Source of the DNA: Saccoglossus kowalevskii
Lineage: Eukaryota; Hemichordata; Enteropneusta; Harrimaniidae
Length of the DNA: 24,876 nucleotides
NCBI RefSeq assembly: GCF_000003605.2
Contig: NW_003156746.1
Coordinates: 200,804 to 225,679 of the forward strand
Direction of reading: 5' to 3'
Part shown: piece by piece, positions 7,790 through 24,876 of the stretch
How the letters are laid out: every line of letters begins with the position of its first letter
How positions within the stretch are numbered: the stretch's first letter is position 1
Position numbers and translations under genes: made by a program
Notes under the pieces: generated by a model
The model's database searches: none
Told to the model about the DNA's origin: nothing
Seen by the model: the letters and a program-made list of their open reading frames with translations, nothing else

Positions 7790-8887
7790 TCAGAGAGATG
7801 TTAAAATATTCATCTGAATTCCGAGTTGAGGATCTACGTGAACAATACTTCCGCCACTAATCTCTACATTTTTCGTGGATGACCGTGAGCGATGTGCTGC
7901 GTATTGGCACTGCGCGTACTGCTGAGCCAGTCGACGAGAGAATGCCAGTCTGAAAGCGATACGATGATTACCACTTGGAAGGTTGTACACAAACGGGTTA
8001 AGGGCAAAGTTAATAATCATCATGACTGGGGAAAGAGTGATCATGCAGTAATCAAACTCGCTATTGAAAGCTACATCAGGGTAGAAAAATGTGATCGTTG
8101 ATATTAAGAGAATGTATACACTTGGAGCAATGCATACAAAGAACACCACGACGATAATTAAACAAATACCCAGGACTTGTCGCTCTTCTCTCAGTCGCGC
8201 CGGTGCATGGGCCACGCCCTCCGATGCTCTTTGCAGACATTTCACGGCAAATTCCTTTGCAATCAAACTATAGAGGAGTATCACAAAAAGCAGGAAAAAT
8301 ACAGTCACACAGGCAAATATCGAAATGATTACTGTTGCAGCGATGCGACCGTATAACACAGTGACAACTAGGTACTCGCAGAGCCCCAATAGTAGCCCGA
8401 CGATCCAAGTGATGGTGATCATTGCCAGCACGCGCACTTTGTAATGATCTCCACTGGGCTGCATTGGTCTACACAGTGCGTTATAGCGATCAACACTAAT
8501 CATGGCCACTGTTAAAATAGAAGTGAAAGTACCAGTGTCCATCATGAACGACCTCAGGAACACGAAGGTGTCTGTGTCGGCGAATGAAAACGGGTACACC
8601 AGAGGTTGTAGCAAAAAGCTAATCAAACATAGCACATCAGCAACCGCCAAATTGATTATATAATAGTTTGGCAAGGTTCGCATTGATTCAACTCTGCCGA
8701 CAACGAAAATGAAAGCAGCGTTTCCTAGGAAACCAATGGAGCCGAAAGTGATAACTAAGATGAGCATTGTAGTGTTGCCGATTCCGCAAATTGTAATGGA
8801 CAATTCACACTTATCTCGAGACTCGTTGTAGAGAAGAGCGTTCGACGTGCAATTATTGTAGTACAATTCGTCATATACCAGCGGCAT
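7790..8887 (-). CDS. orphan rhodopsin-class (class A) G-protein-coupled receptor
   Basis: A seven-helix membrane receptor of 365 residues from the first ATG (8887). The N-terminus is extracellular with three glycosylation sequons (NCT 12, NES 21, NTT 38). Class A landmarks follow in order: GFLGN in helix 1 (N56), NLAVAD in helix 2 (D84), SVDRY ending helix 3 (133-135), W161 in helix 4, Tyr206 in helix 5, NPFVY ending helix 7 (297-301), then an amphipathic helix 8 and a basic, Ser-rich tail. Unusual points: no cysteine at the helix-3 position expected for the class A disulfide, a very short second extracellular loop with no cysteine, no conserved helix-5 proline, and CIAP in place of CWxP in helix 6 (252-255). 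The first three also occur in melanocortin and lysophospholipid-type receptors, but the rest gives no firm placement. The ligand is unknown. The frame stays open for 34 codons upstream without an ATG, so the true start is unsettled. Confidence 0.93.
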   Translation of the reverse strand: MPLVYDELYYNNCTSNALLYNESRDKCELSITICGIGNTTMLILVITFGSIGFLGNAAFIFVVGRVESMRTLPNYYIINLAVADVLCLISFLLQPLVYPFSFADTDTFVFLRSFMMDTGTFTSILTVAMISVDRYNALCRPMQPSGDHYKVRVLAMITITWIVGLLLGLCEYLVVTVLYGRIAATVIISIFACVTVFFLLFVILLYSLIAKEFAVKCLQRASEGVAHAPARLREERQVLGICLIIVVVFFVCIAPSVYILLISTITFFYPDVAFNSEFDYCMITLSPVMMIINFALNPFVYNLPSGNHRIAFRLAFSRRLAQQYAQCQYAAHRSRSSTKNVEISGGSIVHVDPQLGIQMNILTSL

Positions 8888-9074
8888 GTTGTGTGCGGTG
8901 ATTACTCCAATTCGGCGGCGAGTGCAGACTGACCCGATGAACGGTGATGAGAAGAAAACAATTATCAGAAGCGCCTGCAACTTCAACAGTTAGGGTGGTT
9001 CTAAGTAACGCAGTCGACAAACAAACTCCTCACTACCAGCGACGGCCGTTCTTCGTCTGATCGCGACCACTTAC

Positions 9075-18053: not shown

Positions 18054-18394
18054 GTAAATATCGCATTTATTTTATTATCACGTGCGCCAGCTGACTGTGG
18101 GCACGACCGACTGTCCGGTGCTGCAATTCACTGGTAAGATTTCATACCAGATCCGGGTAATTTCATATGCAAATGAATAGTCGCGAAAAGGGGATCGCCG
18201 GCTACAACGGTCGCCCACGACTTACGCGAAATTTCCACAACAGTTTTTGATATCATGTAACAAACTGAACAAATCTTGACGTAAACAACCAACGCATTCA
18301 TGGCGTCATTCAGAATAAATTTGCATACATTATGTTAATATAATTTATTTCGTGACGTCTACATCAACTATGAATTATTCATATCAACTAGAAA

Positions 18395-18507
18395 CCTGCA
18401 GACGGTGAAAGTCTCTCGGACTAAAGTCCCTCGCGTGAAGTGGTTCGCATTCCCAATAAAACGCCACCGGCGTTCGAATGTCTTGGAAAGGACTGTCGAC
18501 AGTCTAC
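18395..18507 (-). repeat. structured element, copy B (diverged)
   Basis: On the minus strand this segment reads in order: GTAGACTGTCGACAGTCC (with the 14-bp palindrome GACTGTCGACAGTC), the hairpin AACGCC-GGT-GGCGTT, a decayed second hairpin, GCGAGGGAC-TTTA-GTCC-GAGAGACT, eight bases, then CTGCAGG. The same blocks occur in the same order at 24225-24368 on the plus strand. The two are therefore diverged members of one family. I do not recognise the family. Confidence 0.6.
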
Positions 18508-18779
18508 AGTTCCGTGTATAACAGTCACGTAAAGCAGAATTTACTGTTGGTACTACAATTCGAACTTATTATGAATCCAACACAAATTTAACAATAAAAG
18601 TATATTACTTCTTGGCAAGATTGAATCTATAATGTACAAGTTGAATAACATTTGCGGACTTGAAAGTTTCACAGCGTCAATACATGGACGTTTTGGGGCG
18701 GAACGTCTGTAAATTATATACACATCATCTTTATTTAGCCGCACCCTAACGCCGCAAAATAAATCTAGGATTCTGGAAT
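18508..18779. other. non-coding, nothing recognised
   Basis: The minus-strand frame spanning 18553-18882 runs through a G12 homopolymer and a GC palindrome and has no recognisable protein. Confidence 0.4.
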
Positions 18780-18873
18780 GGGGGGGGGGGGCGGCGATAA
18801 GTTGGCCCAAGTTCGCGAGCGCCGATGGCGCGAAGCCATGTTGATTGTTAAAAATAGGGGGCCGCGGCCCCCT
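18780..18873. repeat. G12 run and GC-rich 18-bp palindrome
   Basis: A run of 12 G (18780-18791) is followed by a GC-rich segment that ends in AGGGGGCCGCGGCCCCCT (18856-18873), a perfect palindrome. Downstream, ATCTAAATCCGCCAATGG resembles the edge sequence of dispersed repeats. The local G+C content is far above the surroundings, so an inserted repeat is likely, but its boundaries are unclear. Confidence 0.45.
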
Positions 18874-19410
18874 CGGCCCCATCTAAATCCGCCAATGGCT
18901 GCAGGTCCAACTGTGGAACAAAATGGGGAAAATGGCGCTACCGACCCAGATAACTAGCCGGAAAACAAAAATGTGCAGACTTCCCTCAAATAAAAAATCT
19001 CCAAAGGTAAACTAATGTTCCCTCCACAGAAATACTGCATTTTGATCCAGAATGTGTATTATTTAATAATAAAAATACTGATGTTATTGTTTTCACACTT
19101 TAACATCATGAATTCTCCATCAAAGTCTGCTGGCAAAAGAAAAAGCATTATTGTATTGTATTGTGTTCTCAAAAACCAGTGATACCTCCGAGTAAGACAA
19201 GGCGATTGCCACCCAAATTGATGAGGAAATACTATTAAAAGCAATTTACGCAATATTTATATATATTGAATGTATATTCATGATTTTAAGCTCAATTATT
19301 CATAGCTCTAATTGACATCAAGAGCACATCACTTTTCACACTATTTTCACACAACTTGTTTTCATTGTAATTTAAATTCTTTCCATGACCTTATTAACCA
19401 CTGCATACAT
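18874..19410. other. gene-free stretch
   Basis: No coding frame with a motif; A+T-rich from about 19060 onward. Confidence 0.4.
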
Positions 19411-19542
19411 TTAAAGCGCGGTGGTCGTCGCACAGCGCGTGTTCGAATTTCATGTAAATAAACAATGCATTTCACACGCGTTGTATACGTCGTTATGAGT
19501 CCCATATCGAACAGAACGCGGCGCGACGACTGTCGCCCTTTA
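19411..19542. mobile_element. short GC-rich fold-back element (MITE-like)
   Basis: The left arm at 19411-19439 (TTAAAGCGCGGTGGTCGTCG...) and the right arm at 19517-19542 are imperfect reverse complements. TTAAAG and the core GTCGTCGC are identical, giving roughly 80 percent agreement. The loop is about 78 bases and non-coding. The G+C-rich arms stand out from the A+T-rich flanks. No target duplication was seen. Confidence 0.45.
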
Positions 19543-20900
19543 AGTTTGGTGGCAGGCAAAATGAAGTCTTCTGAATACAGTACCATTGTTTGGGGTCATG
19601 CGCTATTTTGTGACATATTTGCTGAACACAATTAGTCAGTCTCCATATTTCTGTCATTTTTATCAGAATTATAATTTTCAGCAAGTCTGTTCTAATTCAT
19701 CTTCATTGTGTAACAGTTGCTTGAGAAGGCAATGCATCATTTATTTTTAACATGTTGAGTTATGAAATGCTACTTAAATTTCTCAATTGCCTAGTGATAC
19801 ATATAATGTATATATCATGTGATTGTGTTTAGCTGTGTGCCAACCTGCACCAACATTCTTATATCACGAGTTCCTGTGGCCCATATATCATATGTCCTTT
19901 ATTCCATGATTTTGACAATGTATTTCAAATTACTATTTTAAATTGTCATGATCATCTTCTGACCAGTAGAATATAAATGCTATTGGAAATTTGCTACACT
20001 GCTACACATTGCCAATATCCAAGAATATTGAGAATTTTGTGGCATTTTATGTTTTCTTGTATGAAGACTTTAAAGACATTGACATGAATAAATCTGTTTC
20101 TCATATCATTGGATTTGTTTGTTTGACATTAACTTGAAGAAATGGTGGACATAACAGAAATTTTAATAACAATGAGAGGCATTTTCATTCAACGTGAAAA
20201 TGAACCAGACATAAATAAAATGTTGAATTTGCTTAATTATTTGGTCTAATTTTTTTGTCTGGTCTCGGGGCTGGACAACTAAAGTTTGTGTATGGTATTT
20301 GTAGTGGGTGCATAAGGATTTAAAACAATTTCTTGCGAAAATCAAACAATCTGCAGAACTGAAGTTTCCACACAAATTAGTTCACCACAGTACTAACATT
20401 TTAATTGTCCATCACTGGGCACTCCTGAATGATTTTACAAGTTTAATAATCTCAATATTTGAAAGTTTGTTTATTGGGGTGGAAGCATGCATACTTCTAC
20501 ATTACTTCAATATGCTAAATATATGGTTATTGTACTTGCTCTATTGGAGTATAAGATTAAATACACACAGAGGCTTGTTAAATTCCAGCTAATCAATTCA
20601 ATTTGTAGTACATGGTAGTACATGAAAGAAACGCAGTATTCATTATTATTAATTGTTTTCAACGTGTTAGTTGTGATTATTTGATATTTACTGCTAGTAT
20701 TTATGTATTTAACATGTTACTTTTTTACCCAGTTTCCAGTTAATGACTTTATTAAACAATAAGGTCTCTCAGCAGTTAATGTATTTATAAATAAAACAAG
20801 TGATAATACAATTGTTTTATAAGAATTCTAGTTGTTTTGACAGTTTGAAGTTCAATTCATTTCATGCATTCTCTGATGCTGTATTTGTGTATTATCATAT
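19543..20900. other. gene-free A+T-rich stretch
   Basis: Only chance open frames under 95 codons on both strands (for example around 20163-20592), without motifs. No repeat recognised. Confidence 0.45.
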
Positions 20901-20945
20901 TGAATGAATGAATTAAGTTTATTTCACTATAAAACATATATACAG
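20901..20945 (-). repeat. possible 3' tail of a LINE-type element
   Basis: On the minus strand the sequence reads TTTTATAGTGAAATAAACTT followed by AATTCATTCATTCAATA. An AATAAA just before a short (ATTC)n tail is typical of non-LTR retrotransposon 3' ends. No coding portion is recognised upstream of it on that strand. Confidence 0.25.
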
Positions 20946-21033
20946 ATAATAATATACAAATGAATTTGATATATAAACAAATTAGTAAATAAAATTGAGT
21001 AAATAAGTATATAATTTGAATTTTAAATATATG

Positions 21034-21211
21034 TATTTTTAGAATATATATATATATTCTTTAAAAACAATTCACCAAGATAACGATGCTTAATGCTAAA
21101 CAATGTGCAGCATTTAAGTTGGCGAAATATGGCCACAACTTTTTACTATTGAGTCAATCTGGATGTTATCATATTATAATCCAAGTACATTAATTTTTTT
21201 CGAAAAAAATT
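21034..21211. repeat. two perfect 20-bp A/T palindromes
   Basis: AGAATATATATATATATTCT (21041-21060) and AATTTTTTTCGAAAAAAATT (21192-21211) are each their own reverse complement. The first can be extended by five further T:A pairs after a two-base mismatch. Both could form cruciforms, but A/T-rich DNA makes such palindromes less surprising. Confidence 0.5.
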
Positions 21212-21229
21212 TCACCTAGTACGTTAAAG

Positions 21230-21740
21230 TTGATTCTCCCTCGGAAAATCCACCTGGGGGGTAACGCTGGTATGTGGCGTAATAGTCTCCGCTGGAGAGA
21301 GCCGAGTTACAATGCATGGTTCAGCGCCAAAGAGAACCCTAGACATACAATAAAGTTTTCAAGCCGTCTGATTGTCTATTTGCTTTGATGTTAATTACCA
21401 TATGTTGCCTTGCGCCAACCACGAAGGCTACACTAAAGAAAGTTGATCGATGCAGCCGACCAGCGCAAGAAATTTTATTGACGCCCGTCGGCACGCAAAT
21501 CAAGAAAAGTATTGTCTTTGCAACTGCTCACCATTGTACTGATTGGCTGGAAACGTTCTCAGCAAGGCCGACTCGGGTAGTGATTGGTTTGCTATTTGAT
21601 TAGATCTTGCGTCCTGGCAAACGGAAACATTTGGCGGCGAGTCAAAGGCTGTCGACAATCGTGCCATGGTTACAGTGGGCGGAGCTTGCTACAGACTCTC
21701 GCCACAGATGCGGGCTTGTTTATTCCGTTTATTGGAGTGT
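21230..21740. promoter_or_regulatory. G+C-richer stretch with CCAAT and GC boxes
   Basis: This roughly 500-base stretch has two inverted CCAAT boxes (CTGATTGGCTGG near 21541, GTGATTGGTTTG near 21581), an E2F-like TTTGGCGG near 21630 and GGGCGG near 21680. The words resemble a proximal promoter of a housekeeping or cell-cycle gene. No start codon with a donor is evident. The short open frames across it carry no domain. Confidence 0.25.
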
Positions 21741-21779
21741 CTTCCCTGATAGCAGAGTTTGCAATAAACTGTGAATAGA

Positions 21780-22289
21780 ACTTATTTATGTATACAAGTT
21801 ATTAGCTGGTAAATGGCCAATTTATGACAATTTAAGTGGCAACTGTTTTTTGATTTCAACAAAATATTTTCTGTGTTATCATATGTGGTCCACGAAACGC
21901 AATAACAGATATATGCCATTTAAATAATAACATGACTTGTTATCTGGCCAAGGGAGGGTGGTCATGATCAACAGCCCAATTTCGGAGAGCATTGACGTTG
22001 CACACATAAAACCCTCACAGTCTAGAACGTGCCAAAGTGACCCTGAATGCAAATACTATGCAATACCTACTTTGTAGGTTTGTGTGCTGGCCACTGAGAT
22101 ACAGTTAGCCTCTCTGGAAGACGCTATCTATGGCGAATTCAGATATGTAATGAAATAAATGACAATATAATAAAGTAGTAAAAAATAGAACTTTAATACT
22201 ATAAATAAATAAACAATAAAATCTGTAATTGCTTTGTATGGGGTGAATGTTGAACAAATTAAGTAAGGTTGTACAGATTGTATTCTTAC
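21780..22289. other. gene-free stretch
   Basis: A+T-rich with no supportable coding frame. The minus-strand frame at 22105-22317 overlaps the first exon-like cassette in another reading frame and has no motif. Confidence 0.4.
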
Positions 22290-22332
22290 CATCGGATTGA
22301 AACAGATTTCTTTTCACTGATATCCATTAGAT
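22290..22332 (-). other. exon-like cassette B (43 nt)
   Basis: On the minus strand, TTATTTCCAG|ATC forms a good acceptor and CGATG|GTAAGAATAC a good donor. The 43 bases are open in the frame entered in phase 1 (LMDISEKKSVSIR). The sequence around its donor resembles that of the cassette at 22710-22771. Whether it is coding, UTR or long non-coding RNA is unknown. Confidence 0.3.
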
Positions 22333-22709
22333 CTGGAAATAATTCAAGTATTCAAAATTACACAAAATATCACATGACATTTGAAATAACAGTAATGATT
22401 CAGCTATTCAAGCACAAAACTAAAAAAATAATACATAAGTTTTAAGTATGTTTAAATAAATGTTTCATAATGTTTATTATGTATAATAAAATAGAAAATA
22501 CAATGGCAAGTAGTGGGTATTTTTTTTATGAAACTTAGGAACTCATGATCTACCCCGGTAATTATTACACTGAGTTTTTAATTTATATCTTGTCTTATTG
22601 TTTTCAAGAAATATATGGAGAAATTTTATGTACATGTAGCAGAGAAATCTAATTTTTGTCTGTAAATTAGATGAAATTGAAATAGTGCTCGTAGAGATTG
22701 TTTTCTTAC
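22333..22709. other. intron-like spacer between two exon-like cassettes
   Basis: 377 A+T-rich bases running from a GTAAG donor to a TTTCCAG acceptor on the minus strand, with nothing else recognised. Confidence 0.25.
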
Positions 22710-22771
22710 CAGTTTATGGAGTTTTCTTCTAACTGGGAGTTGTCCTTGGAGTGTATCATTGTTTATTTGAT
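22710..22771 (-). other. exon-like cassette A (62 nt)
   Basis: On the minus strand, TATTATTTTCAG|ATC is a strong acceptor and AAACTG|GTAAGAAAAC a strong donor. The interior is open only in the frame entered in phase 1 (QINNDTLQGQLPVRRKLHKL). Both cassettes begin ATC, are open only in this frame, and have near-identical donor flanks, suggesting a local duplication. Outgoing phases differ (0 here, 2 in cassette B), which argues against simple mutually exclusive coding exons. Confidence 0.3.
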
Positions 22772-23814
22772 CTGAAAATAATATTCAGAAAATAAATAAA
22801 ACATAACTAACATTTTAGTAAATTATGGTAAATTCTATTTTTTCATAAAAATGTTGCCCACTGACACTAAAATTTAGTTGAATAGAAGCTTGACCTCTTC
22901 TACAACATGCCAAAGTAAGTGACAATAACAGAATATCATAGCCAAACTGTCAATTGCTGATTTATTTTGACATTTGTTGCATTGATTTGATTTGTGTTGG
23001 TAGCTCATATTATCGATTGCTAACGCAACACATCTGTAATAATACCACAATTGCTCTATTCTCACTATAGTTTCGTTAGTTTGTTGCATTCAAAAGAAGA
23101 AAGCAAATAAACATGACAATGCACTAGACTAGAATTATTGGGAAAAATACAAGTAAAGTACGATTACATCCATGACTGACCTCCATCATTGACTGTGGAA
23201 GACTAGACAACAAAGTTTATCGGTAAAACACACCAGAGAAACCAGTAACACATTTTCATAATCAGTTATTTGTCTTGCAGATTAAGTCAGGAGAACAGTT
23301 TAATTGTTTAGCATGCACAATTAACCTTAATTTTGAATAGGAAAATACAGATACGACATATTTGAATTGTATATAACTGTAACCAATTAACAATATTAAC
23401 AACTACATATGTAATATATTTTTGGCAATATATCCCATTTTAATTAGCTAAAGTGTTTCACTGTATACAGTGTTCATTTAAAAAAATATAACTGTATATT
23501 ATGTTAATTAGTATGCAAATTATCCACAACGCACAATTTTCTGGAAAATGCACTGTCACAATTCTATTTATAAAGTTATGTTTATCCAAGGAATTAGTGC
23601 TGCCTGAACAACCTGATGAACTGAGGAAGTCTGCTATTTTTAGAATTGTTTTACGGAAATGGCCGAACTTATCCGAGAACGTCCGATCATATGTACTTAA
23701 ATATTCACGTTCAGCAACCGCCCGATAAATCCGTGAAGTTTAATCTATTGAGCACATAGTCAGCAGAAGTGACGATAGCAATAGCATCGAAGTGAGTCAA
23801 GTCTCATTTTTTAG
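22772..23814. other. gene-free stretch
   Basis: CACTGTATACAGTG at 23459-23472 is a perfect 14-bp palindrome. A plus-strand frame at about 23580-23728 has a plausible composition (ELVLPEQPDELRKSAIFR) but no motif or splice support. Nothing else is recognised. Confidence 0.4.
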
Positions 23815-24010
23815 GTCTATGCATGGACTAAGGTCAGATTTCGTTGAAGAAAGTTTTTTGCTTAACGAATATGAAGATGCTTTCAAATTGTTTATTATAG
23901 GCATTGATTCAAGATTAAACAATCAAAGTCAACAAAATTCACTGATTGAAATCGTTGAACGAAAGTGCTGTCGTAATTGCCTGTCCGTGATCCCTGTGAC
24001 AAGTGTGTGA
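23815..24010 (+). CDS. candidate terminal coding exon, unknown protein
   Basis: TCTCATTTTTTAG is a strong acceptor-like site directly before this segment. Entered in phase 2, the frame runs about 64 codons to TGA and includes SDFVEESFLLNEYEDAFKLF and a cysteine-bearing end, ERKCCRNCLSVIPVTSV. No domain is recognised, no upstream exon is identified and no AATAAA follows closely. It may be a genuine last exon or a chance frame. Confidence 0.22.
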
Positions 24011-24153
24011 GGATGTTCCTTCATGTCTATTTTTAGTAACACGACATTTTCAAGTTCTGGGGAACACTAAAAACAGTTCGTAAATCAAAGAAATAACAGC
24101 ATATATTGCGATAGTATAAGATGAAAGTATACCGCCAATATTATTACGCTTAC

Positions 24154-24209
24154 CTGAAACTGTATCGTGTTGAGTTGGGGCACGGTGGTTGGGGGTGTTG
24201 CGAAATCAT
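24154..24209 (-). CDS. candidate short first exon, minus strand
   Basis: An ATG at 24209 opens 18 codons (MISQHPQPPCPNSTRYSF) plus two bases, ending at TTTCAG|GTAAGCG, a strong donor with its GT at 24153-24152. It diverges from the structured element and the ZAD-like reading frame that lie on the plus strand just to the right, so the interval could be a divergent promoter. The same donor flank (ACCTGAAAC) is repeated in inverted form at about 24217-24226, which may mean the site is part of a small inverted repeat instead. Confidence 0.18.
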
Positions 24210-24224
24210 CTCCAACTGTTTCAG

Positions 24225-24368
24225 GTAGACTGTCGACAGTCCCTCTGGCCTTACGTGTGTGTGTTTTTTTTATTATTAATATTAATCAAACGCCGTAGGC
24301 GTTTGCGAAATGCCGAAGGCATTTCAGGCGAGGGCCGTAAGGCCCGAGAGACTGTTATAGCCTGCAGG
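24225..24368 (+). repeat. structured element, copy A (stem with two hairpins)
   Basis: The palindrome GACTGTCGACAGTC (24228-24241) overlaps the left arm ACAGTCCCTCTGGCCTTACG (24236-24255). That arm is complementary at 18 of 20 positions, without gaps, to the right arm CGTAAGGCCCGAGAGACTGT (24336-24355). The 80-base loop holds two perfect 8-bp hairpins with three-base loops: CAAACGCC-GTA-GGCGTTTG (24287-24305) and GAAATGCC-GAA-GGCATTTC (24307-24325). A third, GGGCC-GTAA-GGCCC (24332-24345), would compete with the long stem. CTGCAGG follows eight bases after GAGAGACT. It could act as a folded RNA in a 5' UTR, a cruciform, or a non-autonomous mobile element. No protein is encoded. Confidence 0.7.
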
Positions 24369-24597
24369 ACTGGCCTTGCTATTAATTATGCATGCATCTC
24401 GATGACGTAGTAATAATTTGCATATGGGCGGAGTTAAACTGTTATGCAAAGGTCAAATCGCGGTTTTTTTTTATGTCACGCATGACTTTGATCGTCTCGC
24501 CGAGTATAGATCGTTTTCTGCCAAGTATTATCCAGAACTACAAGTTGCGAACGCGAGTTATCTAATTTTAAACAAAGGAAGAGTGCGTTGGTGTCTC

Positions 24598-24876
24598 ATG
24601 ATGTACGACAACATTTCGCCCAGTAAAACTCCGACGAAAGTAGTGAGTAAATTGTGCATTCCCCCCCCCCCCGATCCAAGGAGCTAATTTGTATTCTATG
24701 CGGAAGAGAATTCTCTGGTAAAAAAGGATGCAGAATGTCGGCGAAAGTTATTTAAAGGCTCGTCGAAAACCGTCGTATGTAACAACATTGAGGTGGTGAT
24801 AGGAGAGGAAATTGACCGACATCTGAACACTGATGTTTCTTGCCGATCTTGTGCTGATAAGGTGCAGACTGTCGTC
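24598..24876 (+). pseudogene. 5' part of a cysteine-rich (ZAD-like) protein gene, frame broken at two homopolymers, cut by window end
   Basis: The frame begins at tandem ATGs (24598, 24601; MMYDNISPSKTPTKVVSK), though the open frame extends upstream to 24418. It then reaches a C12 run (24661-24672), after which the original frame stops at 24685-24687. In the next frame a CxxC appears (ELICILCGREFSGK, cysteines at 24690-24701). After an A6 run (24720-24725) sequence resembling the family resumes in the first frame (ECRRKLFKGSSKTVVCNNIE) and ends in a second CxxC (CRSC, 24841-24852). Two opposite one-base changes would give CxxC-x46-CxxC, the spacing of a ZAD-type treble-clef zinc domain, with CADKVQTVV after it like the ZAD end. 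Such domains mediate dimerisation in zinc-finger proteins. Homopolymer sequencing error or a real pseudogene both fit. Confidence 0.5.

What the first reader, a model, noticed from the sequence alone, without database searches (positions are those of the whole stretch)
18395..24368. Two diverged copies of an unrecognised structured element with conserved order and a compensatory base-pair change
Seen: 24225-24368 (plus) and 18395-18507 (minus) share, in order, GTAGACTGTCGACAGTCC (18/18), an AACGCC-NNN-GGCGTT hairpin with different loops (GTA, GGT), GCGAGGG...GAGAGACT, then exactly eight unrelated bases and CTGCAGG. In the GCGAGGG hairpin a C:G pair in copy A is an A:T pair in copy B (GGGCC-GTAA-GGCCC versus GGGAC-TTTA-GTCC), so pairing is kept while sequence changes. 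Stems are conserved while loops and spacers drift, which suggests selection on a fold, or a family whose ancestor was structured. Two copies give only one covarying pair, and the second hairpin is decayed in copy B.
Basis: partly seen in the sequence, partly recalled or inferred. Interest (0 to 1): 0.72.

Follow-up and report, generated by a model that had tools for sequence, protein, structure and literature searches.

The report
Folded ends of a jumping gene
The two look-alike hairpin elements are ends of old "jumping genes" (DNA transposons) scattered through this genome, and the ends of several related families can fold back on themselves in a similar way.

Summary
The letters are as reported, but this is not an RNA-type element: both copies are ends of DNA transposons. 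The tip TAGACTGTCGACAGTYC (one mismatch allowed) occurs 284 times in the 572-Mb own genome, against 10 for the reversed-pattern control. Convergent tip pairs are flanked by target-site duplications, mostly 9 bp: exact in 4 of 16 pairs, 0 of 240 mismatched flank pairs. Copy A is the left part of an element cut off by the contig end, with a broken piece of a Cys4-finger gene. Copy B is a deleted member of a second family, without its right tip.

Relatives carry a Cys4-finger exon reading inward from one end and a RecQ helicase start from the other. In the same genome a 10.9-kb element with identical 105-bp terminal repeats and an exact 9-bp duplication carries DUF6589 and convergent RecQ genes. 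I infer that such elements moved A and B.

Most ends tested fold as an outer stem around small hairpins; three stem columns change in a compensatory way between five end types, yet stems of old copies decay without excess compensation. Nearest known group: probably AcademH, unproven.

The parts
24226..24876 (+). Copy A: left part of a family-1 transposon, running into the end of the contig
   Evidence: Matches family-1 relatives L002-L015; contig C4622 ends at the window's last base
24226..24241 (+). Transposon tip TAGACTGTCGACAGTC
   Evidence: 284 places genome-wide for TAGACTGTCGACAGTYC with up to 1 mismatch, control 10
24236..24254 (+). Outer stem, arm 1
   Evidence: Fold; same plan in L004
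24287..24305 (+). Hairpin 1, CAAACGCC-GTA-GGCGTTTG
   Evidence: Sequence, fold
24307..24325 (+). Hairpin 2, GAAATGCC-GAA-GGCATTTC, a near-copy of the hairpin-1 palindrome
   Evidence: Sequence, fold
24336..24355 (+).
   Evidence: Fold
24601..24876 (+). Piece of the Cys4-finger gene; reading frame broken in this copy
   Evidence: 83% to the 90-residue query over the window end with 1 stop inside; the same stretch is open in C4505
18100..18506 (-). Copy B: family-2 transposon with a large internal deletion; right tip missing
   Evidence: BLASTN to family-2 loci, e.g. L056 86.5% over 207 bases and 89.5% over 95 bases
18491..18506 (-). Tip of copy B, TAGACTGTCGACAGTC
18100..18185 (-). Part of copy B that matches the inner part of family-2 right ends
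   Evidence: 91.9% to L045 over 86 bases, 94.0% to L054 over 84 bases

Best explanation
Copies A and B are ends of two families of defective DNA transposons. Shown: the shared tip is repeated genome-wide, it occurs in convergent pairs, and these are flanked by mostly 9-bp target-site duplications. Shown: tip-bearing copies of families 1, 2 and 3 carry a RecQ-like helicase start reading inward from one end, and copies of families 1 and 2 carry a Cys4-finger exon reading inward from the other. Shown: in the same genome a 10.9-kb element, also starting TAG and flanked by an exact 9-bp duplication, holds a DUF6589 gene and a convergent RecQ gene. Inferred: the finger exon is the start of a DUF6589 transposase that binds palindromic sites in the ends, cuts at the TAG tip and inserts with a 9-bp stagger, helped by RecQ; A and B are deletion derivatives moved by such an enzyme. 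Inferred: arms and hairpins were kept in source elements as binding sites or as a fold, and decay freely after insertion.
For: 284 tips against 10 in the control. Nine-bp duplications: exact in 4 of 16 convergent pairs, mean agreement 0.64 against 0.25 for mismatched flanks. C4505 element: finger exon and RecQ start on opposite strands between two tips with an exact 8-bp duplication; the RecQ fragment matches Pfam DEAD at 6.1e-14 and solved RecQ at 4.8e-11. RecQ starts beside tips also in C1309, C1603 and C1554. C1306:33686-44589: identical 105-bp ends, duplication TATGATTCT 9/9, DUF6589 3.9e-29, Helicase_C 7.6e-17, RecQ_Zn_bind 1.2e-5. A Cys4-finger frame precedes DUF6589 in C1075.
Against: No single copy was seen with this tip, the finger, DUF6589 and RecQ together; none of the 9 contigs with a DUF6589 match is among the contigs of the listed exact tips (only the first 100 of 284 tip places are listed). 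The finger of C1075 is not similar enough to the C4505 finger for a BLAST match. Three pairs fit 8 bp rather than 9, and L029, L060 and L063 fit 9 bp poorly. DUF6589 as a transposase is untested: the structure model is unusable (mean pLDDT 33).
Confidence: 0.83

Rival explanations
1. The arms and hairpins were kept only as double-stranded binding sites for the transposase (inverted copies of one motif); the fold of a single strand is a by-product. This is compatible with the best explanation and concerns only why the ends are palindromic.
For: Arms of different families are variants of one motif; own arms are the best match in 4 of 6 families and not in families 3 and 4. The permutation test leaves 6 of 120 arrangements as good as the real one. 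The related C3744 element has ends with no unusual fold (z -0.49 and -0.53).
Against: Three stem columns change on both sides. The C1306 ends, of unlike sequence, have the same plan of an outer stem and a GAA-looped hairpin (z -5.49).
Confidence: 0.55
2. A structured RNA element (regulatory or untranslated-region element) dispersed by duplication.
For: Stable hairpins and one compensatory pair between the two window copies.
Against: Convergent pairs with target-site duplications, coding remnants of helicase and finger between the tips, 0 Rfam matches at gathering scores, and copies that decay without excess compensation.
Confidence: 0.02
3. A Mutator-like element: 9-bp duplications and long terminal repeats are usual there.
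For: Nine-bp duplications; Mu of maize has 9-bp duplications and about 215-bp repeats (abstract of PMC2774946, search listing).
Against: The related complete element carries DUF6589 and RecQ; a MULE transposase was not searched for.
Confidence: 0.06

Closest known systems
AcademH DNA transposons (Kojima 2020, Mob DNA 11:15; the paper is not held; known here from a passage of PMC10045372)
   Same: Helicase-bearing DNA transposon; the passage gives 9 or 10 bp duplications for AcademH, here mostly 9.
   Different: Three pairs here fit 8 bp and none fits 10 best. Whether AcademH has DUF6589 or a separate convergent helicase gene could not be checked.
Kolobok with RecQ (KolobokH; Kolobok-1_CCri with RecQ on the complementary strand; passages of PMC9587614)
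   Same: A transposon with RecQ, in one case on the opposite strand.
   Different: The passage gives TTAA 4-bp duplications for Kolobok; here 9-bp duplications of varied sequence.
Parvovirus-type inverted terminal repeats (recalled, from no call)
   Same: An outer stem enclosing two small hairpins at a DNA end, as a resemblance only.
   Different: Here an inserted transposon with target-site duplications; no sequence or protein relation was tested.

Membership tests
DNA transposon with terminal inverted repeats | Inverted terminal repeats in convergent pairs | tested here: met
   16 convergent pairs examined, one of them a chance internal match
DNA transposon with terminal inverted repeats | Target-site duplication of constant length | tested here: met
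   9 bp exact in 4 of 16; three pairs fit 8 bp; control 0 of 240
AcademH | 9 or 10 bp target-site duplications | tested here: met
   Mostly 9 bp and 9/9 in C1306; 8 bp in three pairs is a departure; criterion from PMC10045372 passage
AcademH | Encodes a helicase | tested here: met
   RecQ starts in tip-bearing copies; fuller RecQ in C1306
AcademH | Academ-type DDD/E transposase | not testable with these tools
   No Academ reference sequence held; DUF6589 model of pLDDT 33
Kolobok | TTAA target-site duplication | tested here: not met
   Duplications such as CAAGTAATA, GGCACCATG, ATATAGAAG
Mutator-like (MULE) | MULE transposase domain | not tested
   The genome was not searched for it
Rfam RNA family | Match at gathering score in the window | tested here: not met
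   0 matches

The most novel reading that the evidence does not exclude
The transposon end works as a folded single strand or cruciform: the element's own RecQ helicase opens the terminal repeat, it folds into an outer stem starting near base 11 with small triloop hairpins, and the DUF6589 transposase reads this shape and not only the letters, so that ends of unlike sequence (five end types with this tip, and C1306) share one plan.
Probability: 0.13. Interest if true: 0.75.

Novelty: new variant of a known kind. Interest (0 to 1): 0.42.

Why it matters
It explains an apparent structured element as a transposon fossil, suggests a role for DUF6589 (a Pfam family of unknown function) as the transposase of RecQ-bearing elements with 9-bp duplications, and offers a testable case of transposon ends whose fold is kept while sequence changes.

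Tried and rejected
RNA element and chance repeat: rejected. B as a decayed copy of A: rejected, they belong to different families.

Tests of the fold that gave weak or contrary results. Family matrix of arms: arm 2 was chosen by best match to arm 1, which favours own pairs; not found in 2 of 34 tips; own arms best in 4 of 6 families (family 2L only narrowly), not in families 3 and 4. Five-family permutation test: one hand-read arm pair per family, columns 1-16 of 18; 27.0 of 33 variable cells against a mean of 22.2, 6 of 120 arrangements as good (the real one included); columns 17-18, left out, hold mismatches in families 3 and 4. Outer-stem scan: own score above the largest of ten shuffles in 40 of 82 tips, in 33 of these with the arm-1 match ending by base 31. 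In hairpin 1, 5 of 17 double changes are hairpin-2 sequences caught by the pattern; in hairpin 2, 12 of 15 double changes (against 4.5 expected) are hairpin-1 sequences, so neither excess was counted as compensation. In one search the ends were picked because their arms were visible (L053 right and C3744 excepted as tests): the L053 right end does not form the outer stem in its best fold.

No terminal repeats were found for C14 and C1561 in the stretches fetched; the left flank of C3659 reads N. Structure prediction of DUF6589 from one sequence was unusable. Papers: none holds the 17-letter tip or the word DUF6589; one search gave 0; some searches were seen as listings. PMC9587614, PMC10045372 and PMC10799480 were seen as found passages.

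Full report
What is there. The window is C4622:200804-225679 of an unnamed 572-Mb genome in 4,830 contigs. It encodes a rhodopsin-type receptor (7tm_1, 6.4e-26), so I take it for an animal (inference).

It is a repeat. A DNA search with copy A gave 40 scored places of 52 candidates, a lower bound. Several are convergent pairs on one contig (C4505, C3219, C1309, C2563). The pattern TAGACTGTCGACAGTYC with up to one mismatch has 131 + 153 matches against 4 + 6 for the reversed pattern; 100 places were listed. I read 30 loci, 40 stretches at listed tips and loci fetched for other reasons; after setting aside L031-L050, sequences with N, those with under 150 bases after the tip and identical ones, 82 distinct tips remained.

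It is a transposon end. For 16 convergent tip pairs (one, L051 1001-2216, is a chance internal match) flanks agree best over 9 bp: 9/9 in L010, L061, L062 and L099, 8/9 in L017 and L098, 7/9 in L021, L053 and L085; L004, L022 and L051 fit 8 bp (7/8, 7/8, 8/8); L029 (6/9), L060 (5/9) and L063 fit poorly. Two further pairs printed and left out for short flanks read 9/9 (L090) and 8/9 (L075).

The two copies. Copy A begins at 24226 and runs to the contig end; it matches family 1 and contains the first part of a Cys4-finger gene that is open in C4505 and broken here. Copy B (18506 to 18100, minus) is a family-2 member with a large internal deletion; it has lost 20 bases after the tip and its right tip.

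What moves it. In the 1,853-bp C4505 element the finger exon reads inward from one end and a 134-residue RecQ start from the other. The RecQ start is also in C1309 (family 1), a family-2 form with a stop in C1603 (45% over 40 residues), and a family-3 form beside a tip in C1554 (52%, one stop). DUF6589 has 11 matches on 9 contigs of this genome and none in the 14 control genomes. At C1306 and C3659 it lies beside a convergent RecQ gene, 35% and 38% identical to the C4505 fragment; C14 and C1561 show the same order by coordinates. C1306:33686-44589 (10,904 bp) is bounded by identical 105-bp repeats starting TAG and by the exact duplication TATGATTCT. In C1075 a frame with a Cys4 finger precedes DUF6589 on the same strand, though its finger gives no BLAST match to that of C4505. 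That the finger exon of families 1 and 2 leads into DUF6589 is inferred from this. C3744 holds another element with finger and RecQ matches, repeats starting TAGACTTGCTTGCAGTC (92% over 169 columns) and a 7/9 duplication.

The fold. Twelve ends were folded. Ends of family 1 (L004), 2 left (L069, L070), 3 (L017, L026), 4 (L072, L096) and C1306 give z from -2.61 to -6.69; the two family-2 right ends give -1.88 (L053) and -2.83 (L055); the two C3744 ends give -0.49 and -0.53. The outer stem starts at base 11 in L004, L017, L026, L055 and L096, as in copy A, at base 10 in L069 and L070, at base 6 in L072 and at base 8 in C1306; it is absent from the best fold of the L053 right end. Across five end types, columns 8, 11 and 12 change on both sides with pairing kept, while columns 5, 7, 11, 13 and 14 hold a mismatch or G-T in some family. 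Hairpin 1 shows no clear excess of double changes in copies (17 against 14.1). So pairing was kept between source families and is not maintained in the fossils. Whether the fold itself or paired binding sites were selected is open; I lean slightly to binding sites.

Filing. A helicase-bearing transposon with 9-bp duplications resembles AcademH as described in a passage of PMC10045372. Its transposase could not be compared, so I do not file it there. RecQ-bearing Kolobok (passages of PMC9587614) differs in its TTAA duplication. Whether this family is already in Repbase could not be checked. The odds for the best explanation were lowered slightly (0.85 planned, 0.83 now) after listing the contrary results.

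Noticed in passing
window 7790-8986 (-): 398-residue open frame of a rhodopsin-type 7-transmembrane receptor (Pfam 7tm_1, 6.4e-26).
   Followed up: no
window about 18790-18890 (-): GC-rich palindrome AGGGGGCCGCGGCCCCCT followed by ...GGCTTCGCGCCATCGGCGCTC... and a C run; closely similar letters lie inside the tip-bearing element L021 (C3647), so it looks like another repeat family.
   Followed up: no
window 21645-21660 (+): Third place similar to the tip core (AAGGCTGTCGACAATC, 3 mismatches) without the following arms or hairpins; probably unrelated.
   Followed up: partly
window 24287-24325 and relatives: Hairpins 1 and 2 are near-copies of one palindrome, AAAYGCC-N3-GGCRTTT, that differ by one compensated pair.
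   Followed up: partly
L112:2191-3480 (C3744): A 1.3-kb element with repeats starting TAGACTTGCTTGCAGTC, finger and RecQ matches and a 7/9 duplication, whose ends show no unusual fold: the fold is not universal among the relatives.
   Followed up: partly
L101, L103, L104 (C1306:33686-44589): A 10.9-kb DUF6589-RecQ element with identical 105-bp ends, which suggests a recent insertion.
   Followed up: partly
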